From positions 1 to 64,000 of the forward strand of contig JAEOSU010000067.1 in NCBI GenBank assembly GCA_016840165.1: a stretch of 64,000 bases of DNA, given 5' to 3'. This document shows, piece after piece, positions 14,560 to 64,000 of this stretch (the first letter of the stretch is position 1; each line of letters opens with the position of its first letter). The translations under genes were made by a program, and so were the position numbers. Under the pieces are notes generated by a model that saw only the letters and a program-made list of their open reading frames with translations, did no database searches and was not told the DNA's origin. Origin of the DNA: Promethearchaeota archaeon (lineage in GTDB: Archaea; Asgardarchaeota; Lokiarchaeia; Sigyniarchaeales; SOKP01).

Positions 14560-16278
14560 ATAGGAGAATATGGGGAGGACGATTCCAAAGAAGAGAATAA
14601 GGAAATTGACAATAAGCTCAATCAAATAATAAAAAAAAAAAATAGTGAACTAATCAATGATTTTGAGCCTCTTGAAGAAAACCAAGATTTAAATGAAAGT
14701 CTTGAATCTAAATTTGAACCTAAAGATGAATCAAAATATATAAAAAATGACTTTGAAAAATATGAGCCAAATTCTGAATTTGAACATATAAATTATAACT
14801 ATAAAAGTAAAGAAAATTCAAAAAATGAAGGTTTCGATATTGAAAAGATTAAAAAAGCGATTAAAAAAAAGGATTGGGATGAAATTTCAAAGGATTGGAC
14901 AATCAAAATCCAAAAAAATCAGTATTCAGACATAGAGACTATTCAATTAAATCCTAGTCAAGATATTTCCAAGGAGAATCCCTTATATAAACATAAAGAG
15001 TGGTTAAATACAATCTATAATAATAAGCAATTAAACTTATATGACAAAGAAATTGGAAAAATTTGTGGAGTCAATACTTCTACAATTGGGAAATGGCGAA
15101 AAAAACATAATATACCAATAAAACCTTTAGGTAAAGGAAGATATATAGACAGAAGAAGTGGTAGAGTATATATTCGAGTTCCGAAAGATTATAATCACCC
15201 AGAATTGGGAAATTATAAAGATAGGATAAGAAATTTTCGACTAGAACATATTTATGTAATAGAACAGTATTTATCAAAACATCCTGAACTAGAAATCTCA
15301 AAGAAATTCTTAATAGATGGTAAATATTTAAAAATTGGATGTGAAATCCACCATATAAATCAAAATCCTCAAGACAATAAAATAGAAAATTTATGGGTCT
15401 ATAAAACAAAAAATGATCATGCTGAAGGTGAATTATCTTTGCGGGATTCTTTACAATTTTTAATAAAAACAAATCGAATTAGATTTAAAGATGGGAGATA
15501 CTATATAAATCAAGATAATAATTCTACTTTAAATCATTCTACTGAAGTTTCTATAAATCAAGATATTAAAGAACCTATCAATTATAAAGACATAAATTTA
15601 GTTAAAGATGAAATTAAAAAGATTAGTTGGGAAAAAATTTCAAATAATTGGACCGTAAAAAATCGAATCAACCAATTTGTAGAAAAAAAGATTCAAGTAG
15701 ATCCTACGAGGGAATGTTCAGTTGAAAATCCGCTCTATAAACATAAAGAATGGGTTGAAAGAATAATTAAAGATAAACGCTATAATTTAACAGATTCTAG
15801 ATTTGGAAAATTATGTGGAATATCAAGGGATAAAGCACGGTACTGGAGGGATAAAGTCCATAATATTAAAGGAAAAACAGATTGGGGCTATGACCGTATT
15901 GTTGATCCTAGTGATGGAAGAATTTGGATTAAGGTACCTGATGATTATGAAAATCCTATTGTTAAGAAGGAAGATCATCAACGTCGAAATATGTTAGAAC
16001 ATCGTTATAATATGGAACGATATCTTTCTGAACATCCAGAACTTAGAATTACTCAAGAAGCTTTAATCGATGGTAAATATTTAAAAACAGAATATCAAGT
16101 ACACCATATAAACTTAGACTTTCAAGATAATAGAATAGAAAACTTATGGGTTTTTAAAAACAATAAACTTCATCTGAAGGCTAGAGAATCTCTATATGCT
16201 CTAGTGGAAGATTTATTAAAACAAACTCAAATCATTTTCAAGGATGGAAAATATGAAATAAATAAAGAAAAGAATTAA
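14560..16278 (+). CDS. Duplicated HTH-HNH endonuclease
   Basis: A 572-codon open frame. After an acidic N-terminus (about 100 residues) it contains two copies of a roughly 215-residue unit. Each unit has an ENPLYKHKEW segment, a helix-turn-helix-like stretch (GKICGVNTSTIGKWRKK; GKLCGISRDKARYWRDK), a RVYIRVPKDY or RIWIKVPDDY strand, and an HNH nuclease motif (EIHHINQNPQDNKIENLW; QVHHINLDFQDNRIENLW). Both HNH motifs keep their histidines and asparagines. There is no ATG, GTG or TTG before 15205, which would delete the first HTH. The frame is open from the preceding TAA, and AAGGTG (14546-14551) sits eight bases before ATA at 14560, used here as start. Read-through of the TAA or an assembly indel are alternatives. 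Confidence 0.65.
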   Translation: MGEYGEDDSKEENKEIDNKLNQIIKKKNSELINDFEPLEENQDLNESLESKFEPKDESKYIKNDFEKYEPNSEFEHINYNYKSKENSKNEGFDIEKIKKAIKKKDWDEISKDWTIKIQKNQYSDIETIQLNPSQDISKENPLYKHKEWLNTIYNNKQLNLYDKEIGKICGVNTSTIGKWRKKHNIPIKPLGKGRYIDRRSGRVYIRVPKDYNHPELGNYKDRIRNFRLEHIYVIEQYLSKHPELEISKKFLIDGKYLKIGCEIHHINQNPQDNKIENLWVYKTKNDHAEGELSLRDSLQFLIKTNRIRFKDGRYYINQDNNSTLNHSTEVSINQDIKEPINYKDINLVKDEIKKISWEKISNNWTVKNRINQFVEKKIQVDPTRECSVENPLYKHKEWVERIIKDKRYNLTDSRFGKLCGISRDKARYWRDKVHNIKGKTDWGYDRIVDPSDGRIWIKVPDDYENPIVKKEDHQRRNMLEHRYNMERYLSEHPELRITQEALIDGKYLKTEYQVHHINLDFQDNRIENLWVFKNNKLHLKARESLYALVEDLLKQTQIIFKDGKYEINKEKN

Positions 16279-24323: not shown

Positions 24324-26102
24324 TTACATTTCTTCATTTGGAGTAGGGGATTCTTCAGTTTCTATGTATTCTCCAATGTCGGGGAAAATAATTCGTGTAA
24401 TCTCCCATCCCTCTTTTGTTGGACGCTTTAACGCATTTTCTATTATTTTTTCTCCAGTTTCATTATTCAACTCTACTTTATGAATATCAGGGTTATTCTT
24501 CAAAATACTTTCAAATTTCGCACCGCTACTTCCCTCTGGAACAATTAATAATGCTTTATCTATTGCTTTTTGATCGAGAGCATCTTTCAAACGTTTTGCT
24601 GCATAATATCCTGCAACACCAGCACTACGATCGAAAGTTTTAATAGAGGGAATTTCTAATCCCCATTTTTTGCCTTCAGCTTCTATTAATGCAGCTAGAG
24701 TTTGTGATCTTTTACCAAGCTTAAATTTGAATTCCATTTGAGTTTTAAAATCTTTCTTTTTTTCCTCCCCTACCATATTAATACATTTTAATGTAGCTCC
24801 TGCAACGGATTGAGGATTGACATCAATCGAGTATTCCTCTTCTGCTAAGATATCTTCAATAGTCTTTTTAATAACTTCTCTTGGTTTTGAGAAATCTATC
24901 ACTTCTTCTTCAATTTCACTTGGTGGCTTAGCTGTCGCAACAAGCTCAGAGCCAACTTCCATAAGTTGTTCTACTGTCATCTCTTCCATTACAACTTTAT
25001 CGATAAACCTTCTACAAAGTTTAATTGAATTTCTAGGATTCCCTTTAGTCTTTTCAAAAATCAATTCAATAAGCTTTTCATTTAATGGAAATAATGGGTA
25101 TAGTGGAGGATTCAAATTATTATCATCCCAAAAAGATTCCATAGATTTCGAGAAAAATATTTTTAGATCATTTAGGCTAAAAGGTTTTAAATCCTGTTCA
25201 GGTTCCATCCTTGACCTTAAAGGAGCATCAGCAATCTCAATGATTCTCGGCCAAATCTCTTTTAAAACTGCAATTATAATTACAAGACTCTTAACTTCAT
25301 TATACAACCTTTTTAAGATTTCCAGGAATTTGCGCTCTGCAACTTCTCCCAAGTATCTATATGGAGATTCTAATTCGTCAAAATAAAGAATAAGCACTCT
25401 ATCTAAATTTTCCGTGATGATTTTAATTAATGCTAAGCATACGTCATCTTCTTCGAGGACTGAATTGATTCCTAATGTTTCTAATTCCTCATCTTCTAAA
25501 TCTTCACCGAGAAGCCACCTTTCTGCTAAAGCTTTCTTATTTTTATCTAATTGGTAAGTCACTAACGCTTTTACACAATCAGCAAATACACCCGGGAATT
25601 CTCTTATCCCCATTTGGATTACTTCCTCAGCCTTAGGCTTTTGGAATATTCCTTTCTTCTCACCACCCCATTTTTTAACTAACCTTTCTGAAACGATATC
25701 AAGCAATTCAGCACCAAGTTCCTCAATAATACATGTATAAACATGAAGTAAAACACGTATACTTGCAGGTGGGCTGGGAACATAAATGATACTCCAATCT
25801 ATGGGCTCTAATTTGCTCACATCTATTTCTTGTGCTTCTGTAGATTCCGATAATTTATTTCTATTTTCTCTCTCTTTATCTTTAAATGAATGATAAGCAT
25901 GAGTTTTGCCTGAACCTGCTGATCCTAATATTGGAATAAGTCTCGCACTTCGATCTTTATATGTTTGACGTGCTAACCTATATACCTCACGATCTATATA
26001 ACTTCGTGGTCTAGCTATATCAATTTTATCTGGTATATCTCCCCTCGATACAAAATTAGAAAAGGGCATTATTGGTGCTTCACGTAACACATCAAGATAC
26101 AT
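24324..26102 (-). CDS. AAA/ORC-like P-loop ATPase
   Basis: 592 aa. Walker A is GSAGSGKT (about residues 57-64), Walker B is VLILYFDELESP (about 234-245) and a sensor-2-like segment is TKGNPRNSIKLCRRFID, an arrangement seen in ORC/Cdc6 and STAND-type AAA ATPases. The C-terminal 200 residues (LGKRSQTLAALIEAEGKKWG, DKALLIVPEGSSGAKF) form an additional alpha/beta domain that I do not recognise. No transmembrane segment is present. It is convergent with the gene at 23393 by eight bases. The function could be DNA- or complex-remodelling. Confidence 0.7.
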   Translation of the reverse strand: MYLDVLREAPIMPFSNFVSRGDIPDKIDIARPRSYIDREVYRLARQTYKDRSARLIPILGSAGSGKTHAYHSFKDKERENRNKLSESTEAQEIDVSKLEPIDWSIIYVPSPPASIRVLLHVYTCIIEELGAELLDIVSERLVKKWGGEKKGIFQKPKAEEVIQMGIREFPGVFADCVKALVTYQLDKNKKALAERWLLGEDLEDEELETLGINSVLEEDDVCLALIKIITENLDRVLILYFDELESPYRYLGEVAERKFLEILKRLYNEVKSLVIIIAVLKEIWPRIIEIADAPLRSRMEPEQDLKPFSLNDLKIFFSKSMESFWDDNNLNPPLYPLFPLNEKLIELIFEKTKGNPRNSIKLCRRFIDKVVMEEMTVEQLMEVGSELVATAKPPSEIEEEVIDFSKPREVIKKTIEDILAEEEYSIDVNPQSVAGATLKCINMVGEEKKKDFKTQMEFKFKLGKRSQTLAALIEAEGKKWGLEIPSIKTFDRSAGVAGYYAAKRLKDALDQKAIDKALLIVPEGSSGAKFESILKNNPDIHKVELNNETGEKIIENALKRPTKEGWEITRIIFPDIGEYIETEESPTPNEEM

Positions 26103-28403: not shown

Positions 28404-28859
28404 TTAGAATAAGTCCAAATATGGTTTAACTTCTTTTTTTCCATTAGAATCTTTGATTGATTGCAAAATTTTTTTGGATAATTCCTTTTTCTTTTTAAAA
28501 TAAAGTTCCATTATTTTTTCCATCGTCAAATTTGGATATCGTTCCACTAGCGCAGTATCTCTCCTTGGGCATCCATTTCGTCTCATACAACAATAAGAAA
28601 TTGATCCAAAGCACACTATTTCTGAATCCCAATTATTTTCTTTAGAAAAATTCTCTTTTATTTTTATGAATTCTTCAGGAGTTAAACCTATTTCTCTTAA
28701 TATTTCATCTCTCTTACACTTAAACCCAAAGGTTAATGAATATCCCGGTTTACAACAAAAAGTTAAGGCTCGAAAATCACCGCCCATACAGATTGGAACT
28801 GGAGCATTTTTCTCCCATCCCGGTACGTCGCGAAGCTTATCTTGATCCAAATCCGTCAT
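28404..28859 (-). CDS. Methanogenesis marker 9-like protein
   Basis: Cysteine-rich protein of about 151 aa. The blocks APVPICMGGDFRALTFCC, CFGSISYCCMRR and NGCPRRD match my recollection of the methanogenesis marker protein 9 family, which is found in methanogens and some related archaea and has no assigned reaction. The many paired cysteines suggest metal or Fe-S binding. I take the ATG at 28859 (MTDLDQDKLRD) as start. A TTG at 28937 would add 26 mostly hydrophobic residues that do not fit the family. It lies just downstream of the tRNA-His gene on the same strand. Confidence 0.7.
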   Translation of the reverse strand: MTDLDQDKLRDVPGWEKNAPVPICMGGDFRALTFCCKPGYSLTFGFKCKRDEILREIGLTPEEFIKIKENFSKENNWDSEIVCFGSISYCCMRRNGCPRRDTALVERYPNLTMEKIMELYFKKKKELSKKILQSIKDSNGKKEVKPYLDLF

Positions 28860-28978
28860 ACTACTTTTTAGAAACGGGGCTATTAATGTAAATAAAAATC
28901 CATAAAGTATTATTAATTTTCCATTTTTAGAATACAAAACTAGATTTCTAAAGAGGAAATAAGGGCCCGGTACGGGAA

Positions 28979-29008
28979 TTGTTCCAACGAGAAGAAAATT
29001 CTCATTAT
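28979..29008 (-). other. tRNA-His intron 3 (T-loop, 58/59)
   Basis: 30-base intron. The central helix GTTC/GAAC (29014-29011 with 28984-28981) is followed by a 5' bulge AA^A and a 3' bulge beginning AA^T. The inner stem is nine pairs, TAATGAGAA/TTCTCGTTG. Cutting after the second bulge base on each strand leaves the canonical seven-base T-loop TTCAATT. Confidence 0.75.
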
Positions 29009-29033
29009 TTGAACCCGTCTCTAGGGATTCACA

Positions 29034-29059
29034 TTAGGGTCTCTATTGGAAATAGAAAT
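29034..29059 (-). other. tRNA-His intron 2 (anticodon loop, 32/33)
   Basis: 26-base intron. The central helix GGGG/CCCT (29065-29062 with 29039-29036) is flanked by bulges AC^A and AA^T, and the inner stem has eight pairs (TTTCTATT with AATAGAGA) closing a three-base loop. Excision places T33 directly before the GTG anticodon. The position differs from the canonical 37/38 site. Confidence 0.75.
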
Positions 29060-29078
29060 GTCCCCAATACTAACCACT

Positions 29079-29107
29079 CTACACATATCCAGTTATTCTG
29101 GGATGTT
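29079..29107 (-). other. tRNA-His intron 1 (D-loop, 15/16)
   Basis: 29-base intron. A four-pair helix GTAT/GTGT (29113-29110 with 29084-29081) is flanked by three-base bulges AGA and AGA on the two strands. Cutting after the second bulge base (AG^A) on both sides removes exactly this segment. The inner stem is ATCC/GGAT. The motif has several G-U pairs, so its boundaries are less certain than those of the other two introns. Confidence 0.6.
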
Positions 29108-29229
29108 CTATACAAACCGGGCCATTTGTGTCTCTGACTTAGAAAAATCAATTAGAATTAATTTAACTTAATAAAAAAATTTATTCATTTTCCTATATAA
29201 GTAATTTTCCTATAAATTGTTTAATAAGC

Positions 29230-30477
29230 TTAAACAAAATTATCAATCGAGACTTGATGATCATCTGAATTTATATATCTTAAATCTAAAATTGGTGAGA
29301 TCTTGACAATTTCGTGATTTATATGGTAAAATTTCTCCACTTTTTCATAAAATTTCTTGATAATCTCTTTTTGTACTCTGATCGGGTTATTTAATAAAAA
29401 TTTCCAATTAAATCCATCATATTCTTTAATTCTAATTAAAATAATTTTATATTTTTCAGCAATTTCTAATTCTAATTTATCTCTCGCAATTTGATTAGCA
29501 AACTCAGAGAATGATTTATGAAATAAAGATGTAAAATTATCGTGTTGGATTCCATCATACTCAAAGGCAACTTTAAATGAGTAGTATTTATTATCCTGAC
29601 CTTTTAATTTGATTTTTCCGTTATATCCATCAAATCTTAATTTTCCAGCAGAAATGATAAATTTAAAACTCTTATTGTTCAACTCTATTGTTTTTAAAAC
29701 TTTTCCCGAACATCCACATGCTTCTCTTATTGAAATTTCAGATTTAAAATTTAAATTAAATACATTATTCATATAGAATGTAGTGATCTCTTGACATTTT
29801 CTTTGTTGGCATATAGGGCACCATGTATCGTCATATATAAGATGTCCTACACGAGCAGTCCAGTTTTTATGGTTTTTATTACATTTTATTTTAATGTATC
29901 TTTTGGTAGGTCTCTCTTTCATTGAATTAAATATTTCTTCTTTAGTGATTATATAACCATTTTTATTTTTAATATATTTTTTTATGGCGTTATAGGAAAT
30001 TGGATTATTTCTATTCTTTTTAGATGTCCAAACGTCATATAATATATTTTTCCCTTCAAATCTACCATATTCTTGAATTAACCAATCTTTAATCCACTCG
30101 GTAATTGTCAATCTGTTTAGGTTCCACTTAAAAGCTAAATCCGATAGGGTTTTAATTTTAATATTGTTTTCAGGATAAAAATTTACTAGTTGATTAATAA
30201 TTTCTTCTTTCAATTTGTACTTTTTTAATCTCGCATCAAGATGAGTGGAAGGCCATAATTGAGAGCGAATTTCAAATGACTTTTTAACTCCAAATTCATT
30301 ATCGAGATATTTAATAATTTTTAACCTAAAACTTGGATATGGTATTTCAAAATATCTCGCATATTCTCTTAAAGACCTAATATTTTTACTTCTCTTGAAT
30401 TCATTTAAATCATTTAGTTGAAAATTTCTAAAGAGTTTGTTGAAATAAGTAACATAATCGTTTCTTTTTGTAGACAT
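29230..30477 (-). CDS. Zinc-ribbon PD-(D/E)XK-like nuclease with HTH repeats
   Basis: About 415 aa. The first 190 residues contain repeated helix-turn-helix-like stretches (LREYARYFEIPYPSFRLKII; LSDLAFKWNLNRLTITEWI). A zinc-ribbon-like part follows (IKCNKNHKNW, then TWCPIC). The C-terminal region reads like a Vsr/PD-(D/E)XK-type nuclease: LRFDGYN, VAFEYDGIQH and RDKLELEIAEKYKIILIRI, with D, E and Q/H in the expected order. This layout resembles homing or mobile nucleases of archaea and large viruses. ATG 30477 is chosen over the in-frame start at 30546. It lies directly upstream of the multi-intron tRNA-His gene on the same strand. Confidence 0.62.
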   Translation of the reverse strand: MSTKRNDYVTYFNKLFRNFQLNDLNEFKRSKNIRSLREYARYFEIPYPSFRLKIIKYLDNEFGVKKSFEIRSQLWPSTHLDARLKKYKLKEEIINQLVNFYPENNIKIKTLSDLAFKWNLNRLTITEWIKDWLIQEYGRFEGKNILYDVWTSKKNRNNPISYNAIKKYIKNKNGYIITKEEIFNSMKERPTKRYIKIKCNKNHKNWTARVGHLIYDDTWCPICQQRKCQEITTFYMNNVFNLNFKSEISIREACGCSGKVLKTIELNNKSFKFIISAGKLRFDGYNGKIKLKGQDNKYYSFKVAFEYDGIQHDNFTSLFHKSFSEFANQIARDKLELEIAEKYKIILIRIKEYDGFNWKFLLNNPIRVQKEIIKKFYEKVEKFYHINHEIVKISPILDLRYINSDDHQVSIDNFV

Positions 30478-30586
30478 AGTACTAATTTTTAATTTGATCT
30501 GAATAAATGTCTTACTTTCTCTAATTATGAATAAACAAATAATCATTTGGACGGTGGTTATTTTTCAAAATTTAGAGGAATCCTAT

Positions 30587-51044: not shown

Positions 51045-54000
51045 CTATACACTTACTACAATTTGTAAACGACCGAAATAATAATCTGAATATATATCCT
51101 TAGCAATATCAAAGTCATAACCGAGCAGATCAACAAATAAATTCTTTAATTCCCATGCTGACAAGGAGTTGAGCCGATCAGACAAGCCAAGATGTTGGAG
51201 AAATTCATACTTATTGTCAAAATTCTTAATAACAAAAGTAGCATAAAATCTTAACAACGGAATAATATCCTTTCTTTGCCAATGTTCGTAGAGCGACTCC
51301 CGCTTCCTAAACCAGGTATAGTATGATTGAACTGAAATTCCTAGATCTTTCAAATATTTCTCGAATTCTTGAGGAACTAAATTTTTATCGAAATCGAATT
51401 CCCTGAAGTATTTAGCGGTCAGAAAACCCTTTAGATATTCATTCCCCATTGGGAAATATTCAGAACTAAGAGTCCGCATTACTCGATTAGGATCCATACC
51501 TCTAAAATTAGAAGCTAATTCATCAAACTCAAATATACCATCATCCATTAATTCAAACATCCTCTTTCCAGGATAATACACACGAGCTGCTACAGTACTC
51601 ATACCTACGGCTCTCCATAGTACTCTCGTTAAAACGCCTGGACTTTTCGCTTGAGAAATTCCTATATAATCTCCAATTTCATGACCAATAAATCCGTGTG
51701 AAAAAAGGAAGGTAATTTTACCATCCAAATCTCTTTGACTATAACCAGTAGTCTCATATTTCGCGGTTCTTCCTGTCAGACCTCCCTTAACATTATACAA
51801 GTCTTCTCCCAATCTCCGAAACTCCTCAATCCACCAATCCTCCAAAACTTTTATTAGATAAGTGTCTGATTTAAAATTTCTCCCAAGCAATTGGATTTCG
51901 ACGATTTCAAGCTCCATTGATTCCCTAATTGCATCCATGCCCGCTTGACCTCTTCCTGCACTATCATAAATGTTTCTTATATCTAAATAAAATTCATTAT
52001 ATTTCTTCTTTAATTCTACCTTCCTAGTACTTAGTGCTGTGTCGAGCTCCTCTTCAAACCTTACAGACATTGAAGAAAAAGGACGACAATAAGGTGTACC
52101 CTTAACACGTTGAGTCCTACCAACATAGAACTTTCCCGTTTCTTTATTCTTCCATTTATAAATCATCCCGAACACATAATCATCACCTAATCTCTGCCCC
52201 TTCCATACATTTAACAAAAAGCGTTGGGTATGCTGCGGGTTCCCTCCACATTCATGAGAGATAATTCTCTTAGCTCTTGGGGGAATTATTGATTCCCCTG
52301 TCACCAGATCGCTCTGTGGTTTATGAGGAGGCCCTCTCCCGCCCATATAGAAACTTGCAACATCAGCAATTACCCTTTCTAATTGTGTCCAATCTTCATC
52401 CTTATTAAATTTGTCTTGAAGTATAGCCATAACCTCCCAATTCATCTGTTCATTAATAATAATATCTAATCCATGATATCTCGTAGACTTAAGAACCTCT
52501 CTTGCTTCTAAGATTAACTCAGACCGGTAGATAATTTGGTCGAGCACCTTTTCAGGCTTGTTCTGGTCATAATTGGGATCAAATAATTTCGCATGAATAT
52601 AATTTATCCGATCTTTATCATATTCTGGGAATAATCCTTCAAAATTGTCTACATGAACAATATCTGTTTTAACTATATCATCCGAAACTTTTTGTTCTAC
52701 TAGAACATTTTCTTCACTGGCCTCCTCTTTATAAAATTGCATTTGGAATGATTGAATATCATACCCAATACTTTCAGCATTCTTACCTAAAACAATTTCT
52801 TTAAACTTGTTGAATAAATCAACTTTTTGTTCAGTCTTAGGATCAGAATTAATGCTAGGGAATGAAATTGTTAGAGGTGGATTGTCAATCTCGATATCTT
52901 GCTTACCTCTAAAGAGGTCTCTTAATGATTCCCCATCGATTTCCGCTGGTTTCTTCGCTTGTTCTTGTAGCATGTTGGATAACACTGTGCTATCAAGAAC
53001 GTCTTGTTGGTCTTTGAACATATTCTGGATATCAGCTTTCCTATTTGCTTGTTGAATTGATTTTCGTTTCCCATATGCTTGGGGAGCGACAGCAACAGTG
53101 CTCTTAATCATCTTATTAAGCCCCATTAATGCGAAAAAGTCAAACGAGCCGAAAAAGATACCAGGCATTATCATGAGAAGTCCCTTGAAAAATCCAGATT
53201 TTATCAACCGCTCCATGGTGGTCATACTGTCTAATCTCTTTTGCTCTGCTTCACGTTGCTGCTGTAAGTCTTGCTGTATTCTCTGCCTCAAATCGATATA
53301 TGCACTCGGATCTCCTGCTTTCAAGGCTCTTACAGTCGCAATGCCTTGTTTAAGCTCAGAAAATCCACCTAATGCCAATTCTCCTAATGCACCTTTAACC
53401 TCCCTATAGGATGTTCCTAATGACGATAGCCAAAATCCTGCATCTTCAGAAAGTCCAGCAAGATCGGCAATGTTCTCAGCAAATGCTTCAATAAAGCCAT
53501 CTTTAATAATCTCCTCAAATACCTCTTGAATGGGACTTGTGACCAACTGGAGAACGGATTTTCCTATCAATGCTTTTACTGAATGAACCCCAGCTTGTGC
53601 CATCATACCGCTAGTGCTCATTATTGTCCATGAACCAAGTAATATCAAGGGAGCACTTATAAGCGTTGACCAGAAGGTCATTGTCTCTGTATATGCAATT
53701 TCTGAGATCATTTGGGCGGTAGTTTCCGCATATGTGTATTGATTGAAATAGTCCATTATGGTATAATAGGTAGCTTGAGCTAACGCTAATTTGTAATTCT
53801 CAGCCTTTGTATCATTAACAAACACATCAAACACGATGTGCACGTTATAGTACACGGAAGTTTGCGCATCAGTCTGCTGTAAGGCGTTATAGAACGAGGA
53901 ATATTGATTAATAATGATGGTCTCAAGTGGTATTGTGAAGTACAAATTACCACTATCAATTGCAAACTGTGCCTCATCGACAACCAGATCTTGAGCAAGA

Positions 54001-57000
54001 TAGTTAATTCCTTCACTTGGATGATCTCGTATCACGTCAATAGAGATATATCGAATCGGATATTCAAAACCTCTATCATTAATTGGGATCTTCGATCTAT
54101 ATCCCGCTTTGGTTTCAATATCATTTAGCGAATACGCATTAATCCCTTCAGTATTAATGGAATATTCCTCATCATAACTGCATTCAGTAGTTATAACTAA
54201 ATGCCCTGGTTCAGGATCAATTTCATCAAATCTACTTTGACTCAACACGATTGGTCTAAACAAAACGGATTGAGGTAATATGGCTTCATAATTAGTACTA
54301 TTAATAAATTCATATTGCGGTCTGCCATCTATACATGTTGCTCGAATCGCGTCAAGGTGACCATCAGAGACTATCCCCACCTTTCTCTCAAGATTACCTA
54401 ATGTATTGGCATAATACCAATTATAAATACTAGTAATACTGTCGGTATTTTTATAGGTATAATGACTCTTCTGGTTGAATGAAGGCAATTCACTAGTCAA
54501 TAAGAAATAATCCAAATTCATATCATCAAAATCCAATGCCCAGAACGCATCGGGATCTGATTCTCCCATACTTTCGAAATTCTCCCATAGTAAATCCAAG
54601 AATCCGCCAAATGAGTCTAATAACCTTGCTGGATTTGGCGGACTTACTAATACTTCAGCGTTATACCTATTACCAGGTTCTCCTCCACTAACTGTGGTAT
54701 AATAACCTCCTGGATGACCAATAAGAGCTGCTGCCATTGTATCTCCAAGTACTCTATCACCAAGTGACTTCTCATTTAGCGATACAGGATCTCGCACTTC
54801 ACTTGATACTGGGTAAAATGTCTCAGAACGTGTTCGAGATTCTGCTTCATGCAGATCCATATCAATGAAGAATTTAGTCATCAAGGTATATACTGTGAAA
54901 TAAGTCAATGCATTTAATCCAGTAAGCGCCCCAATCCCTGCTGTTAAAGCAGTAACTGCAGCACTCAACGTTGAAGCGGTCACCGACATGAATACCTGTT
55001 CTGCGATATCACCTACTAGTTGTTTTTTATATTGCTCCCATGCTTGTGAATAAGTCTTATGTCGCACTTCATAGAATAGAGTGGAGAACTTAGGATTTTT
55101 GCTACTTTGTTCTGTAAGTTTATATATTTCAAATATCTGATCTTTCGGCTTATAATCATCCCATACAGATTCTTCATCCCATAAGAGTTCAACATATTGA
55201 AGTTTATCAAATTTGTATACCCAATCAGAGCCAAACATAGTGCTCTCACCTGCTAACCTATTAAACGTGGAAGTTATCTCTACGCTCTTATCTAATCGTT
55301 CATAAGGAGCAAAATCATGAATGCCGTCATAATTGTATCCAATGGTGATTACATCATATTCAGGAATCCCAGTTGCAGAAGTACCACAAATATCACTTAC
55401 AACATACACAGTTTCATAAAATCCATTTGAATCACTATCGACATAGAAATAAGAGCCGCTGGTCTTTGCAGTTCTATCAATGAACGAATCAATATCAGAA
55501 GTATAATACACCTGTCCATCTGGTGGTGTAATAAGCACTCCCTCTACTTCAAACTCAACCCATCCATCATCTACTACATTAGATTTTGAAATCTTGCCAT
55601 AGTCATTATAGAGAGAAAAGCGGTTTGGAATTCTTAGAATTATTTTTTCATCAAATGCATTTACACTATAGGCATAATCTTCTCCAACTACTTGTAAGGA
55701 ATCATATTTAACTGGAATATGATCAGAACCCCATGTGGGACTTGACCAACTGATATTAGCAGGATCCGTGAACGGAAGGTCGGGATCAAATAGTACTGAA
55801 ACTTCTTGCCCTGTTTCAATGTCTGTAATTGCATGCTCTTGGGCTAACTCTGAGAAAAAGTTATCTGCAACATTAACTTCATGATCTTTAAATTCATCAA
55901 TATAGACTCTTTGTTCCTCAATCCCACCTTCATCGTCAAATTCAATAACCGTGATCGCTGATTGCTCAAAAGTATCAACGTATGTAGTAGTTATGCTTTG
56001 CTTGAATTTTCTATATGTAGCCCGTAGAGTTGGGGCGTTATCCTGAGTGTATCCATTGCATGAACTAAAGTCTCCAGAATTAAGCACTTCTTCTGTGAGA
56101 TCCTCGTTAAATACAGGATTCTCATATGATCCGGTAAATAAGGATTCAATACTTTTATCAACATATTCTGCTATAAAAGTAAAAATATCTTGCTTTTTTG
56201 CTGCTAATATCGTCTTTCTGACTTCTTTTACCTCATAATAGATATCAACAGTAGTACGTTCAAAATTCATTTGAGAATCGGGATACCCATCCCTATCATT
56301 ATCAACTTTAACGCTATAGAAACTTGTTTTACTATATTCTTCTTTAGTTACCATTTGTTGAGTAGATTTCTTAGCCCAATAATCGACATCAGGAAGGATC
56401 ATCTTCGATATATGTAATGCTAATAGGGGTAAAGTAAGCACGATCTCAATTAATTTATCTACATTAAAATCATAAGATGCGAAGATTCTATCATTAATAT
56501 CAAACCATTCAGTATGTCGCTGTTCATCTACTTGTTGTTGGATGGTAATTTCTGAGCTTTCAAAATCTTGAATAACAGTATGCCAATAAATTTCTCCTGA
56601 ACCTTCTGGATCATCAATACCATATCTTATAATGTCTATTTTACCATCTCGATCAACGTCAATAGTATGCTTATAGTCTGGCTCTCCGTCCATATCGATA
56701 TCTGCTACATAAATTATGGAGCTTTCATCTTTGTAGAGTTCAAAATTATCATATAATTCTAACCCATAGCCAATTAACTTATCATTATCCCTCATATCTG
56801 GGTTTCGGCAATATTTACTAGATTTAAAGGATGTATATTCACTTGTGATAGTTGCAGCACTTTCAGCTAATAATGGGATTCCGGACTTTGATATGTAATT
56901 ATAATCAATATCTACATAATTATAGAAAGTTTCCTTAACATCGGTTAGATATGTCTGATTAAATTCATCTAACAGATAAATTTCAGTAAAGCTGGATATT

Positions 57001-60000
57001 GGGCCATATGAAAAGTTTAAAATAGCAGTGATTTGATCAAATGCATCAAGGAGTCCATCTCCAGAGTTCAAGTCAGTAATTGTTAATTGTCCTGTGATGG
57101 CATTAAATGCTACTGTGAAGTCACTATTATCAGTTAGGGTTGTGGATGAAAAGGTTGCATTCAAACCAATTACCTTATAGACGCTTACATTTACAAAATC
57201 ATCTTCAAAGGAAAGATCTCCAATATCATACGTATGGGTATATTCAGAAACACTAGTATATACGCTAAAGGATTCATAATAATATTGTACTACCTTATAT
57301 TCAGTTTCGTTCTTGAAGGAATATGCAATATTCTCATAAGAATGATCCATGCTAAATTGTTGGCCATACCATTCATAATATTCTGGTTTCAATAGATAAT
57401 TATAATCATAAATTACCCGAATTGAGTCAAGATCAATATTTTCCACTTCAATTAATATAGGTTGTGCCCAAGAAGTATTAATCACATACTCAAAGTATAA
57501 TGTTTTATTTGGTTCGATTATTAATGGTTCTTGAAATTCCATACCAAAGTATTCTGGGAATTGATTAAAATCTGGATTCCAAGTAAATGTATTGGTAGCA
57601 GATTCAAAGTGTAATTGATGATCATTTCCCGTAATACCTGCGGTATAATAATTACCATCTTCATCATAAATATTAAGATAGTCTAACCATTCTGAATTTG
57701 GATAGAATAATGGAATTTCATCTAAAGCTAGTTGATATGAATCATCTTCTGGAGTGGCACTTGCAGTAAACATTTCAACCTCAGAATATTGCCATACTCG
57801 ACTATCTATATTACCCGCTTGAGTTGTGCCTTCAAATGAATCTTCTAAGAGTATTATTTCGGAAATGGTTAATTCATATGAAGGATCTGGCATGGTAAAG
57901 AGCAGATGAGTGAAATTCAAGACGTCGCTTTGCGTGGATTCATAGAGTGAAGTAAGGTCTAACTCAATTTTAACCGCTTTATATCTTCCATTATGTTCGG
58001 TATCAAATGGTGTTAATTGTAAGGGAGTCTGATAATAATAATCGGCAGTGAAATCTGAATAGGCGGTATCAGAACTGGCTTCCACTAATAATATTTCTGC
58101 TTTTGGAAGATCTGAATGGGAAGCATAATTATATCCTTTATTTTCAAAATATAACTTACCAATACCTACCGCTATACCCTTCTTGATTGGCGAATTATAA
58201 CGAATTGCGATCACTTGATCTTCTATAAAGGACATTACTTCTTTAGTATCTGGATGAATATATGTAGTCGGAATGTGTAAAGTGTATACATCTTCTTCTT
58301 TGGTATAAGTTAAGGATTTTCCTTCAGGGAATTCTAAATATTCGAGTCTATCATTAAAGATATATGCTAATTCATCTAGTCCTGTTTTTAGAGCATAGTC
58401 TAACTTTACATGGAAGTATTCTTTCCCGCTATTTAGAGGGGAAACCGATTCAGAATTCCATTGTGCAGTCTGGAATCTCGCAATTCCTTGTATATTATCT
58501 CCATTATACTCTTTATCAGTCCTAAATGTGGGAATAAGCCTAATCTTTTTCAGCGTATTAGAAGAGGTTGGTAGTTCAATTTTGATATTATAATCATACA
58601 TGAGTAATTCTTCTCTAGAGAGCGTCTGAGTAAATGCTGACATCAATCCAGAATTATCATAAAGTTTAATGGTGAGGTGATCCACACTTTCAATATTTCT
58701 TATATTTGTATCAATGTAGAGTGCAAGGTACGTTCCATTGTGAATTTCATTAATTAATCCGCCATCAAAATCCCCGATTTCACCTTCTAAGTTAAATTCT
58801 AACTCATCTCCTTGCTCAAGATATGCAGCAATTTGAGAGGCATGACATACAGTAGTAGCTATGGTGGAATCTTCCTCATTTATAAAATAAAATGCATCTA
58901 AGTTAGGAATTACATCTACTCCACTTTCACCAATGACATCCCAATAGGGCATATCTAATGTATCTGTAATGGGCTCTGCGGGATTGTAAGTAAAGCGATA
59001 ACTGGCAAATTCTTTATCGTTACTTTCCGAGACAAAAGATACGTAAAATTCCATGAGTCCATTTGGTAAGACTAGCACATTCTCATCATTTTTGATTATA
59101 ATTTCACGTGTGGCACTAAGATATTCATAATGGATTGGATCTAAGAATCTCATTTTGCCAAATCTATCATAATAATAGATATTGATCGAATTTTCTCCAT
59201 TAACTTCAAGGACATCAATATAATTATCCAATTCTTCAGACATTAATTCATATACATATCCATTCTTAGAACTACTGAAATATTGAGATTTGATTTCAAA
59301 TTTATTCTCATAATAATCCCTTACATTTAAGCGATAGCTCAAGTATAAAGTATATTTGTTTTCAATAGAAAGGCTGTATTCGAAAGGAGTGATAATTGAC
59401 CCTCCACTTAGTTTCCTATATTCTTCTCTATAGTCAATTTGAGGATTATCACTTACCAAAGGATCATAAGGCGTATCAAAAATGTTGCTCCATGGGTAAG
59501 TTACAATCAAAAAGTGCTTTCTATCAAGCAGACCTGGTTGTAATTTAAATTTATAAGAAAGCTTAATGGCACTCTTTGGTTCAATATACCCTGATTGTCC
59601 TTCTGATTTGTCATTAAAGTAGATATATTCATTTTCAATCTTTAATACATAATCATTAAAGAGAGATTCGTTGGAATATGCTATAAATTGATCATCAATA
59701 TATAAAGCAATTTGATACGCGTCATGTTGATCTCCCAAATACTTATAATTAAATGGGGTGTGTCCCATTTCATATTTAAGTAGTGTGGAATTATATTGAG
59801 CTAATACATAGAGATAAGAATTCTCGACAAGCTGATATTCTGAGCCATAGGTTGTCTTAATATAAGCCTCAATATTGTCGAAATTGATGGTATATTCATA
59901 AGAATCTGGGGTATTTTGAGATAAATAGCTCTTTGACTCCTCATTAGCAATTTCAAATACTTCAATAGTTTCTTCATCCTCACCTTTTTGAGCCAATGTA

Positions 60001-63000
60001 TAAATTGTAGGGAATAGGATATAATCTTCTTTATATTGTCCTTCTGGAACAATATATTGTATGCTAAATTCATCAGTACTACTTTCTCCGGTGTATAATA
60101 TAGAAATATTATAAAATTCTTCAGGTTGGAATGTAAATAGATCCTCTCCATCTTTAATATACGTACTATTGAAAATCTCCCATTCTAACGCAGTATATTC
60201 AATTGTAAAACTTGTTTCATCAGAGAAATCAGGGTGCAGGTGATATGTATCTCTATCTGTATAGTTGTAATCCCATTCAATTTGTGAAATATAGGGATCT
60301 TCTGGATCTTCATGGATATAATAATCATAGCTATTGATAAATTCATGATTAATCCAATAATCGATCATGATTTTATTTTCATCATCCGTATAGGAGCTTA
60401 ATTCTCCTACTGCTTTAAAGAATAGAATATATGCAGTTCCGTTTTCATCATATTCTAAGGCAAAATCAGTATCAATCTCAAGTATATCCTCAGAAGGAGT
60501 AAATGAGCCGCTATAACCCTCAGATATTAAATTGCAATAATCTTCTTTGTAATTCCCGACTGGAAATCCTTGTACAGATAATGCATAGGAATAGGGCATT
60601 CCCACAGCTCGAATTTCAGCGACGTCAATATCTTCTATTAATTGTAGTCCAAAGTTAATTATTTTGCCATAATTTGGGAAAATATTTTCCATAACTGAAG
60701 AGCTGTTTATATCAATATCTAAATCAAATAATTGATGATAAAAGACTTGTCCACTTACCGTTATAATATCTGTGGTTAAGAATTTATCAGCAAAATTAAA
60801 AGTGTCCTCCCAAGAGGTTGGTTCATTTCCTGAAATCGAGGATCGATAATCTGGTATTGAACTGCTCTCATAATCCATGTAGATTGTATTTATATATTCT
60901 TCCTCTCCTCTTATCGAAGTTCCAGAACCGTAATAAAGGTCAACATATCCATCTTGATACAAAGGCTCATCAATATCATAGGTATCAATAAACATGCCTA
61001 AGTTAGGAATCATATAGAAATTCTCAGAATTTACGGGAAGAGTCTGTTTCCAGCCAATATAATCAAAAGCATAATTCACTCCATCTGAATCTACTGATAC
61101 TAAGGTTACATTAGGTAAGTCTTTTAACGCAACTGTTACCTTACTACTATCTATTAAATTAAATGGAGATTTTCCATAGATACAATCGACAAGAGGGCGA
61201 CTAAATATCTGATAGTAATGGGGAGTGTTTACCGCAGCTTTTATATCGAAATTGCCATATTTATCTAAGGGCATTCTATCATAATTCTCAACTAAATGCT
61301 CATCAGAGATATAATCAAATTGCTCTAAGATAACATATGGAATATAGTTATCACTACTTCCTACTTGATGAATAGTAATTTCAATATCAACACTATCAGT
61401 TCCAACCATGTCATAAATCGCTTGGAGATCTTTATTATAGCCAATAACATAACTATTTGCTACGATATCTGGCTGAATCTCAGTATAATTTAATGGAACT
61501 ACTTTAGGATCTGAATAATATTCATAAAATCCATCGTTTGTCGTATATTTAAATTCAATCGTTAAATCATTGAAATCATCTCCATAAGTTTGAATTAAGT
61601 CTAGTAATGCATGATCCAGAATGAATGTTAAATTAATTTCTGGAGCATATAACAATGGCACATTCAATAACTTGAGAATGGTCTTTTCATTTGAATTGTC
61701 TAATGAAATATATAACGCGGAATCTTCAAGCGTTAATGGGTATATCTCATTGCTCGATTCATCTAATAATTTAGAAGTGGAGTCGGTATTATTTATTAAC
61801 CTTACAGAATCGCTATATGATTTATTATACTTCTGGAATCCGTATCCGAGGGTATATTGCGATTTTACTCCATAAATTACTGTAAATGGAGAAATTGGGG
61901 GTGTAATTTGATCAAGGGTAATCTTTAAGTGATTTCCTACTATTGCCTTCACAATTGGATTATCATTATTTAGTATCTCTAATTCATGTTCATTGTAGAT
62001 GATAAAATCCGAGGGTACAGCATTCTGCTTTCCATAATCTAAGGTATAATCAGCAGTAGTTCCATCACAATCTTGGACAAATCGAGTGAACATAGGAGAA
62101 TAGGAATTATCACTTTCAGGTAAGAATCCAGCAGGTAATCGAAGCTCTATCGAACTCTCATTATATTCATTAGTATATCCGAGTGTTATTATACCATAAT
62201 TATTAGAGCCAAAATCAAACTTTAATTTGTAGATAACTGAAAATTCAGTTCCCTCATCAGGAACATTAGCTCCCGTAAACCTAATGACTGAATCATTGCT
62301 TAAGATACCAGAAGGATAATACGGGGCAGTCCAATCAGTAGTCTGTTCAAACTCATATTCATCTCCCTCTTTTATTCCTATTACCTCTAACACACTAATC
62401 TCAGTTAAGGCATTCAGCAATAATAATTCACTATCAGCATCAATACCATATTCTAAGGTATCATTACTAAACAAGAACGCAATTTCCTGTCCATACGTTT
62501 GTCCGTTTTGAATCCCTCCTAAATACCGTACACTATCACCGGTTGATACTGCATCCTCTATTGCTACGGTAATCGCACCGGAAGTAAATCCATCAACATA
62601 TATTGACCATATGGTGTTTGGATCATTACTGGAAGGATTCTTTTCCAGCCTTAAGTCCAATAAATAGATTTCAACATCTCTTTCATCCTTAAAAATTTGA
62701 TCTCTATTGAAATCAATACTAAATGATAAATTTAAATCACATTGAAGCCCCATTAAAAATGCATCTTCTGGACCAAGCCCTATAGTAAAGGTCATTAAGC
62801 CATCATGATTCCCTGGACGGAGCATAATATCATTTCGCAGGGGGAATGTGCTAGTAGTACCATCCTCGTTGTAGATTGTACAATCTAAATTAATGTCAAT
62901 ATAATCTTGGACAGATTCCTCACCACCCGATGAATTGAAATAAGGTTCTACCCATACACTTCCTATTAAAAATGGATAATTACTTTCAAATGGCATTTCC

Positions 63001-64000
63001 TTATCACTGTTATACGCTTCACCCCATGCAGAAACAAATGGATCAATAAGTTCAATATGGGTATTCTTCTCTCCGAATTTAATCCAGTTTGCGGGTCTTA
63101 TTTCTAAAGGTACGGCGACTACAGGAGATGCTTTATAAAAGTCAGATTCTACCACATGTACTCTGATGGTGGAAATACCTGGTCCTAACTTCTCACAGAG
63201 ATCTACTATTGTCTCATTATCTACTGTTATAGTTCCACTATCATATGCTTTATGAATCTCCTTATAAAGAGTTTCTACTATATTTCCAGAAGGTGTAATA
63301 AACTCAATATATGCATAATAACGATAATCACTATCATTTAGTATGTTTAATGGAAGTGGTTCTAATTCTGAATTGGTGTGGACTTTACTTAGATATTCTA
63401 CACTTGGAACCGTGGTCGATGGGATTGGTTTAGCTTCTGTCACGTGTAGGTGCAATGTTAATGGATCATATGTCTCATCAATATCATCATCAGGTAAATT
63501 ATAGGCATAATAGTCATTAATACCAAGAGCAATATCTTTCTTATGGAGATGGATAAGTCCTTCTACATAAGTGGAATCCTGAAGGACTGATTGTGTAATA
63601 TCATAAGCAGGAACCTGAGCAGTGCCGTTGAATACTATTCCATCTTTTGAGCTAACATATTCATATGGAGAATCAATTGCCATCTCATCCCAATCTTCAA
63701 CATAGGTATTAAAGGCGCGAATATACAACACACAATCTTCAATATCAGAAATCTGGAGCTGTCTATTTTCTCTTGATATACTTCCCCAAATCTCAAAGAA
63801 ATCAGTAAGAAAGTCATGATCAAATGAAATATCAAATGAAACTTCTCCGGTCTCATCAGTAATTCCATACGTCCAAATATAAGGTCCATATGCAGAGTAA
63901 TTTGAATAGTCGTGCTTAATCTCATAGATAAGAGGTCTACCATACATTTTATTTGCAAGATCAGTACCTCCTCCTGGACCTCGGAATGTAACATCTTCAG
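51045..64000 (-). CDS. Giant beta-rich membrane-associated protein with C-terminal GIY-YIG domain (partial)
   Basis: The frame stays open to the window edge, so the N-terminus is missing; more than 4,300 residues are visible, numbered here from the ATG at 63947. Residues 1 to about 2,400 are Thr/Ser/Asn/Tyr-rich beta sequence resembling an extracellular repeat stalk. Calcium-loop-like motifs occur near 2,415-2,437 (DIDMDGEPD, DVDRDGKID) and 2,550 (DNDRDGYPD). Hydrophobic stretches lie near 2,985-3,026, 3,419-3,445 and 3,586-3,612. At 3,927-4,055 is a GIY-YIG nuclease-like domain: GMIYKWKNKETGKFYVGRT, a glutamate in LEDWWIEEF and LYNVKGG. A helix-turn-helix-like tail follows. The layout recalls large secreted toxins with C-terminal nucleases. 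No homologue search was possible. Confidence 0.8.
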   Translation of the reverse strand, partial: EDVTFRGPGGGTDLANKMYGRPLIYEIKHDYSNYSAYGPYIWTYGITDETGEVSFDISFDHDFLTDFFEIWGSISRENRQLQISDIEDCVLYIRAFNTYVEDWDEMAIDSPYEYVSSKDGIVFNGTAQVPAYDITQSVLQDSTYVEGLIHLHKKDIALGINDYYAYNLPDDDIDETYDPLTLHLHVTEAKPIPSTTVPSVEYLSKVHTNSELEPLPLNILNDSDYRYYAYIEFITPSGNIVETLYKEIHKAYDSGTITVDNETIVDLCEKLGPGISTIRVHVVESDFYKASPVVAVPLEIRPANWIKFGEKNTHIELIDPFVSAWGEAYNSDKEMPFESNYPFLIGSVWVEPYFNSSGGEESVQDYIDINLDCTIYNEDGTTSTFPLRNDIMLRPGNHDGLMTFTIGLGPEDAFLMGLQCDLNLSFSIDFNRDQIFKDERDVEIYLLDLRLEKNPSSNDPNTIWSIYVDGFTSGAITVAIEDAVSTGDSVRYLGGIQNGQTYGQEIAFLFSNDTLEYGIDADSELLLLNALTEISVLEVIGIKEGDEYEFEQTTDWTAPYYPSGILSNDSVIRFTGANVPDEGTEFSVIYKLKFDFGSNNYGIITLGYTNEYNESSIELRLPAGFLPESDNSYSPMFTRFVQDCDGTTADYTLDYGKQNAVPSDFIIYNEHELEILNNDNPIVKAIVGNHLKITLDQITPPISPFTVIYGVKSQYTLGYGFQKYNKSYSDSVRLINNTDSTSKLLDESSNEIYPLTLEDSALYISLDNSNEKTILKLLNVPLLYAPEINLTFILDHALLDLIQTYGDDFNDLTIEFKYTTNDGFYEYYSDPKVVPLNYTEIQPDIVANSYVIGYNKDLQAIYDMVGTDSVDIEITIHQVGSSDNYIPYVILEQFDYISDEHLVENYDRMPLDKYGNFDIKAAVNTPHYYQIFSRPLVDCIYGKSPFNLIDSSKVTVALKDLPNVTLVSVDSDGVNYAFDYIGWKQTLPVNSENFYMIPNLGMFIDTYDIDEPLYQDGYVDLYYGSGTSIRGEEEYINTIYMDYESSSIPDYRSSISGNEPTSWEDTFNFADKFLTTDIITVSGQVFYHQLFDLDIDINSSSVMENIFPNYGKIINFGLQLIEDIDVAEIRAVGMPYSYALSVQGFPVGNYKEDYCNLISEGYSGSFTPSEDILEIDTDFALEYDENGTAYILFFKAVGELSSYTDDENKIMIDYWINHEFINSYDYYIHEDPEDPYISQIEWDYNYTDRDTYHLHPDFSDETSFTIEYTALEWEIFNSTYIKDGEDLFTFQPEEFYNISILYTGESSTDEFSIQYIVPEGQYKEDYILFPTIYTLAQKGEDEETIEVFEIANEESKSYLSQNTPDSYEYTINFDNIEAYIKTTYGSEYQLVENSYLYVLAQYNSTLLKYEMGHTPFNYKYLGDQHDAYQIALYIDDQFIAYSNESLFNDYVLKIENEYIYFNDKSEGQSGYIEPKSAIKLSYKFKLQPGLLDRKHFLIVTYPWSNIFDTPYDPLVSDNPQIDYREEYRKLSGGSIITPFEYSLSIENKYTLYLSYRLNVRDYYENKFEIKSQYFSSSKNGYVYELMSEELDNYIDVLEVNGENSINIYYYDRFGKMRFLDPIHYEYLSATREIIIKNDENVLVLPNGLMEFYVSFVSESNDKEFASYRFTYNPAEPITDTLDMPYWDVIGESGVDVIPNLDAFYFINEEDSTIATTVCHASQIAAYLEQGDELEFNLEGEIGDFDGGLINEIHNGTYLALYIDTNIRNIESVDHLTIKLYDNSGLMSAFTQTLSREELLMYDYNIKIELPTSSNTLKKIRLIPTFRTDKEYNGDNIQGIARFQTAQWNSESVSPLNSGKEYFHVKLDYALKTGLDELAYIFNDRLEYLEFPEGKSLTYTKEEDVYTLHIPTTYIHPDTKEVMSFIEDQVIAIRYNSPIKKGIAVGIGKLYFENKGYNYASHSDLPKAEILLVEASSDTAYSDFTADYYYQTPLQLTPFDTEHNGRYKAVKIELDLTSLYESTQSDVLNFTHLLFTMPDPSYELTISEIILLEDSFEGTTQAGNIDSRVWQYSEVEMFTASATPEDDSYQLALDEIPLFYPNSEWLDYLNIYDEDGNYYTAGITGNDHQLHFESATNTFTWNPDFNQFPEYFGMEFQEPLIIEPNKTLYFEYVINTSWAQPILIEVENIDLDSIRVIYDYNYLLKPEYYEWYGQQFSMDHSYENIAYSFKNETEYKVVQYYYESFSVYTSVSEYTHTYDIGDLSFEDDFVNVSVYKVIGLNATFSSTTLTDNSDFTVAFNAITGQLTITDLNSGDGLLDAFDQITAILNFSYGPISSFTEIYLLDEFNQTYLTDVKETFYNYVDIDYNYISKSGIPLLAESAATITSEYTSFKSSKYCRNPDMRDNDKLIGYGLELYDNFELYKDESSIIYVADIDMDGEPDYKHTIDVDRDGKIDIIRYGIDDPEGSGEIYWHTVIQDFESSEITIQQQVDEQRHTEWFDINDRIFASYDFNVDKLIEIVLTLPLLALHISKMILPDVDYWAKKSTQQMVTKEEYSKTSFYSVKVDNDRDGYPDSQMNFERTTVDIYYEVKEVRKTILAAKKQDIFTFIAEYVDKSIESLFTGSYENPVFNEDLTEEVLNSGDFSSCNGYTQDNAPTLRATYRKFKQSITTTYVDTFEQSAITVIEFDDEGGIEEQRVYIDEFKDHEVNVADNFFSELAQEHAITDIETGQEVSVLFDPDLPFTDPANISWSSPTWGSDHIPVKYDSLQVVGEDYAYSVNAFDEKIILRIPNRFSLYNDYGKISKSNVVDDGWVEFEVEGVLITPPDGQVYYTSDIDSFIDRTAKTSGSYFYVDSDSNGFYETVYVVSDICGTSATGIPEYDVITIGYNYDGIHDFAPYERLDKSVEITSTFNRLAGESTMFGSDWVYKFDKLQYVELLWDEESVWDDYKPKDQIFEIYKLTEQSSKNPKFSTLFYEVRHKTYSQAWEQYKKQLVGDIAEQVFMSVTASTLSAAVTALTAGIGALTGLNALTYFTVYTLMTKFFIDMDLHEAESRTRSETFYPVSSEVRDPVSLNEKSLGDRVLGDTMAAALIGHPGGYYTTVSGGEPGNRYNAEVLVSPPNPARLLDSFGGFLDLLWENFESMGESDPDAFWALDFDDMNLDYFLLTSELPSFNQKSHYTYKNTDSITSIYNWYYANTLGNLERKVGIVSDGHLDAIRATCIDGRPQYEFINSTNYEAILPQSVLFRPIVLSQSRFDEIDPEPGHLVITTECSYDEEYSINTEGINAYSLNDIETKAGYRSKIPINDRGFEYPIRYISIDVIRDHPSEGINYLAQDLVVDEAQFAIDSGNLYFTIPLETIIINQYSSFYNALQQTDAQTSVYYNVHIVFDVFVNDTKAENYKLALAQATYYTIMDYFNQYTYAETTAQMISEIAYTETMTFWSTLISAPLILLGSWTIMSTSGMMAQAGVHSVKALIGKSVLQLVTSPIQEVFEEIIKDGFIEAFAENIADLAGLSEDAGFWLSSLGTSYREVKGALGELALGGFSELKQGIATVRALKAGDPSAYIDLRQRIQQDLQQQREAEQKRLDSMTTMERLIKSGFFKGLLMIMPGIFFGSFDFFALMGLNKMIKSTVAVAPQAYGKRKSIQQANRKADIQNMFKDQQDVLDSTVLSNMLQEQAKKPAEIDGESLRDLFRGKQDIEIDNPPLTISFPSINSDPKTEQKVDLFNKFKEIVLGKNAESIGYDIQSFQMQFYKEEASEENVLVEQKVSDDIVKTDIVHVDNFEGLFPEYDKDRINYIHAKLFDPNYDQNKPEKVLDQIIYRSELILEAREVLKSTRYHGLDIIINEQMNWEVMAILQDKFNKDEDWTQLERVIADVASFYMGGRGPPHKPQSDLVTGESIIPPRAKRIISHECGGNPQHTQRFLLNVWKGQRLGDDYVFGMIYKWKNKETGKFYVGRTQRVKGTPYCRPFSSMSVRFEEELDTALSTRKVELKKKYNEFYLDIRNIYDSAGRGQAGMDAIRESMELEIVEIQLLGRNFKSDTYLIKVLEDWWIEEFRRLGEDLYNVKGGLTGRTAKYETTGYSQRDLDGKITFLFSHGFIGHEIGDYIGISQAKSPGVLTRVLWRAVGMSTVAARVYYPGKRMFELMDDGIFEFDELASNFRGMDPNRVMRTLSSEYFPMGNEYLKGFLTAKYFREFDFDKNLVPQEFEKYLKDLGISVQSYYTWFRKRESLYEHWQRKDIIPLLRFYATFVIKNFDNKYEFLQHLGLSDRLNSLSAWELKNLFVDLLGYDFDIAKDIYSDYYFGRLQIVVSV

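What the first reader, a model, noticed from the sequence alone, without database searches (positions are those of the whole stretch)
28964..29123. tRNA-His interrupted by three short introns at non-canonical sites
A gap that looks empty encodes a complete tRNA-His only if three segments of 29, 26 and 30 bases are removed. Each has a four-pair central helix with bulges that cut after the second base, so one rule removes all three. The result is 74 bases with a perfect acceptor stem, canonical T-loop, GTG anticodon and the G(-1):C73 pair specific to tRNA-His. Three introns in one tRNA, none at 37/38, are known mainly from Thermoproteota; I do not know of a described Asgard case. A default tRNA scan could miss it and report histidine as lacking.
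Basis: partly seen in the sequence, partly recalled or inferred. Interest (0 to 1): 0.85.

Follow-up and report, generated by a model that had tools for sequence, protein, structure and literature searches.

The report
Histidine tRNA with three removable inserts
In a Lokiarchaeon, a relative of the ancestor of eukaryotes, the gene for the histidine carrier RNA is cut into four pieces by three short inserts that the cell must splice out; related species carry from none to four such inserts at the same spot, which makes it a good place to study how such inserts come and go, although the kind of gene is already known.

Summary
On the MINUS strand at 29123-28964 lies a tRNA-His(GTG) gene broken by three bulge-helix-bulge (BHB) introns at about 15/16, 32/33 and 58/59. 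ARAGORN and Rfam see nothing; the spliced RNA is called tRNA-His(gtg). Syntenic orthologues in nearly 40 Lokiarchaeota genomes carry 0-4 introns at seven sites; genes lacking an intron show the exact junctions, and BHB helices covary. Corrections: the D-loop intron is more likely 31 than 29 nt (mature RNA 73 nt with G-1). An intact tRNA-His exists in the assembly (contig C79), but C79 and the window contig C48 are orthologous segments of two species: C79 belongs to the main genome and C48 looks co-binned, so the intact gene does not refute this one. The likely enzyme is a two-gene (alpha-beta)2-type endonuclease with the specificity lysine of crenarchaeal enzymes. Multi-intron Asgard tRNAs were reported in 2024 for Atabey- and Freyarchaeia, so the kind is known. 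What looks new is the Lokiarchaeial case, a four-intron relative, fast turnover, and one pair of near relatives in which the change coincides with a recombination boundary.

The parts
28964..29123 (-). tRNA-His(GTG) gene, precursor 160 nt, read from 29123 (G-1) to 28964 (C73)
   Evidence: spliced form called tRNA-His(gtg) by ARAGORN; syntenic orthologues
29108..29123 (-). exon 1, GGCCCGGTTTGTATAG: G-1, acceptor 5' strand, D-stem 5' strand, A14 G15
   Evidence: sequence; alignment with orthologues
29077..29107 (-). intron 1, D-loop (15/16), 31 nt by comparison with relatives; the 29-nt alternative is 29106-29078
   Evidence: 31 nt gives the D-loop of relatives (central helix 3/4 pairs); 29 nt has 4/4 pairs but leaves 2 extra bases
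29060..29076 (-). exon 2, TGGTTAGTATTGGGGAC: D-loop, D-stem 3' strand, anticodon stem 5' strand, C32
   Evidence: sequence
29034..29059 (-). intron 2 at 32/33, 26 nt, BHB with GGGG/CCCT central helix and 8-bp inner helix
   Evidence: 88% identical to the 26-nt intron at the same site in L106
29009..29033 (-). exon 3, TGTGAATCCCTAGAGACGGGTTCAA: U33, anticodon GTG, variable region, T-stem 5' strand, T-loop to A58
   Evidence: sequence
28979..29008 (-). intron 3 at 58/59, 30 nt, BHB with GTTC/GAAC central helix and inner helix of 8-9 bp
   Evidence: helices covary among 6 orthologues
28964..28978 (-). exon 4, TTCCCGTACCGGGCC: T-loop end, T-stem 3' strand, acceptor 3' strand, C73; no CCA encoded
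   Evidence: sequence
28404..28937 (-). conserved downstream neighbour, Cys-rich protein, no Pfam match; marks the syntenic tRNA-His locus in relatives
24324..26102 (-). 592-aa protein without Pfam match, one full-length orthologue in most relatives, used as anchor and species marker

Best explanation
This is the functional tRNA-His gene of a Lokiarchaeon. The precursor folds three local BHB motifs (D-loop, 32/33, 58/59). A tRNA-splicing endonuclease of (alpha-beta)2 type cuts each motif two bases into each bulge, and a ligase joins the four exons into a 73-nt tRNA-His with encoded G-1. Shown by sequence: the gene, the junctions (by comparison), BHB geometry and covariation, orthology, and endonuclease genes in every related genome searched. 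Inferred: transcription, the splicing itself, ligation, and that this is the organism's only tRNA-His. Introns at this locus turn over fast between species; in one pair of near relatives the change coincides with a recombination boundary.
For: The spliced RNA is a full cloverleaf, tRNA-His(gtg). The score is far above shuffles and random places. Relatives lacking each intron show the same exon junctions. BHB helices covary: 58/59, 98.9% of cells paired and 3 pairs changed on both sides; 32/33, 90.9% paired, 8 of 14 pairs changed on both sides, 0/500 shuffles reaching the covariation score. Conserved synteny. Two PF01974 genes in 28 of 31 related genomes and one found in the other three: an alpha with candidate Tyr, His and Lys and a lysine aligned with Lys44 of the Aeropyrum enzyme, and a beta with Tyr in place of the His. 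That lysine is linked to broad specificity in PMC6379350.
Against: No RNA data. The D-loop intron boundary is uncertain by 2 nt. The organism that owns contig C48 is not otherwise identified, so a second tRNA-His there cannot be excluded. The endonuclease genes were read on other contigs and genomes, not on C48. Catalytic residues were judged by alignment and motif, not tested.
Confidence: 0.93

Rival explanations
1. The locus is a redundant or dying copy, because the same genome carries an intact tRNA-His on contig C79.
For: Intact tRNA-His(GTG) at G000:C79:33182-33253 in the same assembly.
Against: C48 and C79 are orthologous over about 40 kb with the same gene order. C48 is nearest in gene content to G030 of another genus, while C79 is 95% identical to the near relative G019 in the 592-aa gene and a gene on the 287-kb contig C30 is 92% identical to G019. 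Relatives have one full-length orthologue of the 592-aa gene and one tRNA-His where one was found; the second pattern hits in G004, G010 and G015 are not tRNAs. All acceptor, anticodon and T-stem pairs of the C48 gene are intact.
Confidence: 0.06
2. Chance: any AT-rich gap would give a tRNA if three free excisions are allowed.
Against: Maximum score -18 in 120 shuffles and -11 at about 200 random places, against 109.5; orthologues with other intron sets at the same place.
Confidence: 0.005
3. A second organism is not needed: one cell acquired a large segment from another Lokiarchaeon and carries both alleles of the region.
For: Recombination between lineages seems to touch this locus in one pair of relatives.
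Against: At least 40 kb of duplicate synteny would have to be kept; no relative shows such a duplication of the marker gene. The CheckM contamination of 6.3% fits co-binning, but relatives with one copy of the marker show 1-9% as well, so that figure alone proves little.
Confidence: 0.05

Closest known systems
Multi-intron tRNA genes of Thermoproteales (Pyrobaculum, Thermofilum)
   Same: BHB introns at non-canonical sites, up to three per gene (PMC3218864, PMC8450103); tRNA-Pro(UGG) of P. islandicum has three (PMC4090602); (alpha-beta)2 endonuclease
   Different: The reviewed Pyrobaculum example includes a canonical 37/38 intron, absent here; the host here is an Asgard archaeon and one relative has four introns. 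In Thermoproteales very similar introns occur in different tRNAs and sites (PMC4090602); here introns at different sites of this gene resemble each other less than those at one site
tRNA introns of Atabeyarchaeia and Freyarchaeia (PMC11291895, 2024)
   Same: Asgard archaea, non-canonical positions, over half of tRNA genes with multiple introns
   Different: Other Asgard lineages; the main text gives no Lokiarchaeia tRNA intron result and no comparison across species at one locus
Crenarchaeal (alpha-beta)2 tRNA-splicing endonuclease (Aeropyrum pernix, PDB 3p1z and 3ajv)
   Same: Two genes, catalytic and structural; a lysine in the specificity loop aligned with Lys44 (PMC6379350)
   Different: Lokiarchaeial; activity and assembly not tested

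Membership tests
archaeal tRNA-His | GTG anticodon and encoded G-1 facing C73 | tested here: met
archaeal tRNA-His | complete cloverleaf after processing | tested here: met
   ARAGORN 112.9 (31-nt form) or 108.9 (29-nt form); partial removal gives a call only when introns 1 and 3 are out and 2 is read as an intron
archaeal tRNA-His | expressed and charged with histidine | not testable with these tools
   no RNA data
BHB tRNA introns | two 3-nt bulges flanking a 4-bp helix, cut after the second bulge base | tested here: met
   4/4 central pairs for introns 2 and 3; intron 1 has 4/4 as 29 nt or 3/4 as 31 nt
BHB tRNA introns | helices kept by compensatory change among homologues | tested here: met
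   tested at 58/59 and 32/33, not at 15/16
BHB tRNA introns | cut by the host splicing endonuclease | not testable with these tools
   genes for both subunits present in related genomes
(alpha-beta)2 splicing endonuclease | separate catalytic and structural subunit genes | tested here: met
(alpha-beta)2 splicing endonuclease | crenarchaea-specific loop with the conserved lysine in alpha | tested here: met
   sequence alignment with 3p1z_B, GINKPR against DVEKPR; structure not modelled

The most novel reading that the evidence does not exclude
In one Lokiarchaeial family a single essential tRNA gene gains and loses BHB introns so fast that near relatives differ completely, with up to four introns in one gene, and whole intron sets are exchanged between species by homologous recombination at the tRNA.
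Probability: 0.45. Interest if true: 0.65.

Novelty: new member of a known kind. Interest (0 to 1): 0.45.

Why it matters
Histidine could be scored as lacking its tRNA in this and many related Asgard assemblies, because ARAGORN and Rfam fail on the gene; the same Rfam search finds only 20 tRNAs in the 99.7%-complete window assembly and 20 in a 3.3-Mb single-chromosome Lokiarchaeon. The locus gives a clean comparative series (0-4 introns, fixed neighbours, named genomes) for asking how BHB introns are gained, lost and exchanged in the archaea nearest to eukaryotes, whose own tRNA splicing endonuclease is related. It also warns that an intact tRNA elsewhere in a metagenome bin may belong to another species.

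Tried and rejected
Plus-strand reading of the locus: no coherent tRNA. The idea that C79 is a paralogue was dropped after the synteny and marker comparison. Seed searches missed tRNA-His in some loci because the contig ends or the gene is diverged; these were left out of the tree. In L101 two introns were found with poorly fitting boundaries and it was left out. The intron decoding of other tRNAs is rough and used only to show that other tRNAs also carry introns.

Full report
CHECK. The window holds no tRNA by ARAGORN and no Rfam match at gathering level; even at E<=10 the region 28900-29200 gives no tRNA match. On the minus strand a search for strict hBHBh' motifs ranks the 30-nt and 26-nt introns first and second, and the 29-nt intron is among the next best. 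Splicing all three gives 75 nt, which ARAGORN calls tRNA-His(gtg).

COMPARISON. A search of 58 related genomes brought back orthologues at the same place, next to a conserved Cys-rich gene. Spliced alignment shows different intron sets: none in C79; one in G009, G015, G021, G025, G028, G029 and G030; two in G004, G016, G022, G023, G027, G033 and G035; three in G002, G003, G007, G010-G013, G018, G019 and G026; four in G020. Some junctions with weak motifs (for example one in G019) are uncertain. A scan of named genomes anchored on the 592-aa neighbour gave 43 loci, all Lokiarchaeota, and resolved tRNA-His in about 25. L117 (isolate SZ_4_bin8.338, RDOE01000024.1; evidently the same contig as in G020) has four introns, all with 4/4 central pairs. 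[quoted passage not shown] I could not check the supplementary tables of the 2024 Asgard paper.

D-LOOP INTRON. Relatives have D-loop AGTGGTTA. A 31-nt intron restores it, with 3 of 4 central pairs; 29 nt has 4 of 4 but leaves two extra bases. ARAGORN prefers 31 nt. I favour 31 nt, not firmly.

CHANCE AND COVARIATION. Against the C79 mature sequence the locus scores 109.5; shuffles reach -18 and random window places -11. On the six introns at 58/59, the window's included, 98.9% of cells pair, with three pairs changed on both sides. On eleven 30-nt introns at 32/33, 8 of 14 pairs change on both sides and no shuffle reaches the covariation score; the window's own 26-nt intron is not in that set. 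The D-loop intron was not tested in this way.

TWO ORGANISMS IN ONE BIN. The assembly also has an intact tRNA-His on C79. C48 and C79 share gene order over about 40 kb at mostly 50-85% protein identity. The 592-aa gene is present once at full length in most relatives and twice here. C79 is 95% identical to G019 in that gene and C48 83%; phosphoglycerate kinase on the 287-kb contig C30 is 92% identical to G019. In the protein tree C48 falls apart from C79 (moderate support). So C79 goes with the main genome and C48 is most likely a co-binned contig of another species, with G030 nearest by gene content. CheckM contamination is 6.3%, but relatives show 1-9%, so this is only weakly informative. 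A ribosomal protein S8 search found one copy, so the foreign share of the bin is partial.

ENZYME. All 31 genomes searched have PF01974 genes, 28 of them two. In the window assembly, alpha (C14) matches the catalytic-type subunit 3p1z_B (E 3e-38) and aligns a lysine with its Lys44; beta (C4) has Tyr where alpha has the catalytic His. PMC6379350 links that lysine to broad specificity. These genes are not on C48.

TURNOVER. On a tree of the 592-aa protein of 27 genomes the least number of changes is 5, 4, 6, 2, 6, 4 and 1 at 15/16, 22/23, 32/33, 37/38, 45/46, 58/59 and 59/60. Only 10 of 24 inner branches are strongly supported, and gain cannot be told from loss. Introns at one site resemble each other (45/46 mean 0.68, 58/59 mean 0.74) more than introns at different sites (mean 0.45, maximum 0.70), which points to common origin with many losses or to exchange. 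L114 and L132 are 93-95% identical over most of the locus and 99% just downstream of the tRNA, but 83.5% over 0.7 kb upstream and into the tRNA; L114 has only a 45/46 intron, L132 has 22/23 and 37/38, neither resembling other introns. The intron change therefore coincides with a recombination boundary in this pair. This is one case, seen after the fact.

KNOWN. Multi-intron archaeal tRNAs are established (PMC3218864, PMC4090602), and in Asgard archaea since 2024 (PMC11291895: 92-95% of tRNA genes with introns in Atabey- and Freyarchaeia, over half with several). My paper searches found no Lokiarchaeial description, within an open-licence library only.

Noticed in passing
G000:C48:51045-89687 (window 51045-64000 and beyond), minus strand: An open reading frame of 12,880 aa runs off the window; the 4300-aa stretch translated from the window has no Pfam match. 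Giant genes are reported in Asgard archaea (PMC8813620: 3,000-6,000 aa in Heimdall aloposons, other giant genes elsewhere).
   Followed up: partly
window 29230-30546, minus strand: A 438-aa protein without Pfam match sits between the tRNA-His and the guanylate-kinase-like gene; it has no counterpart in the syntenic segments compared. By eye its C-terminal part suggests a nuclease fold (inference).
   Followed up: partly
window 15205-16278, plus strand: HNH endonuclease (HNH_3, E 2e-12) with no counterpart in the syntenic segments compared.
   Followed up: partly
L114 5375 and L132 6044: Identity jumps from 83.5% upstream to 99.1% downstream inside the tRNA-His region of two otherwise 93-95% identical loci, a likely recombination boundary at a tRNA.
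   Followed up: partly
G000 (all contigs) and G058 (CP070831.1): The Rfam tRNA model finds only 20 tRNAs in each, several with introns; many tRNA genes are probably hidden by introns.
   Followed up: partly
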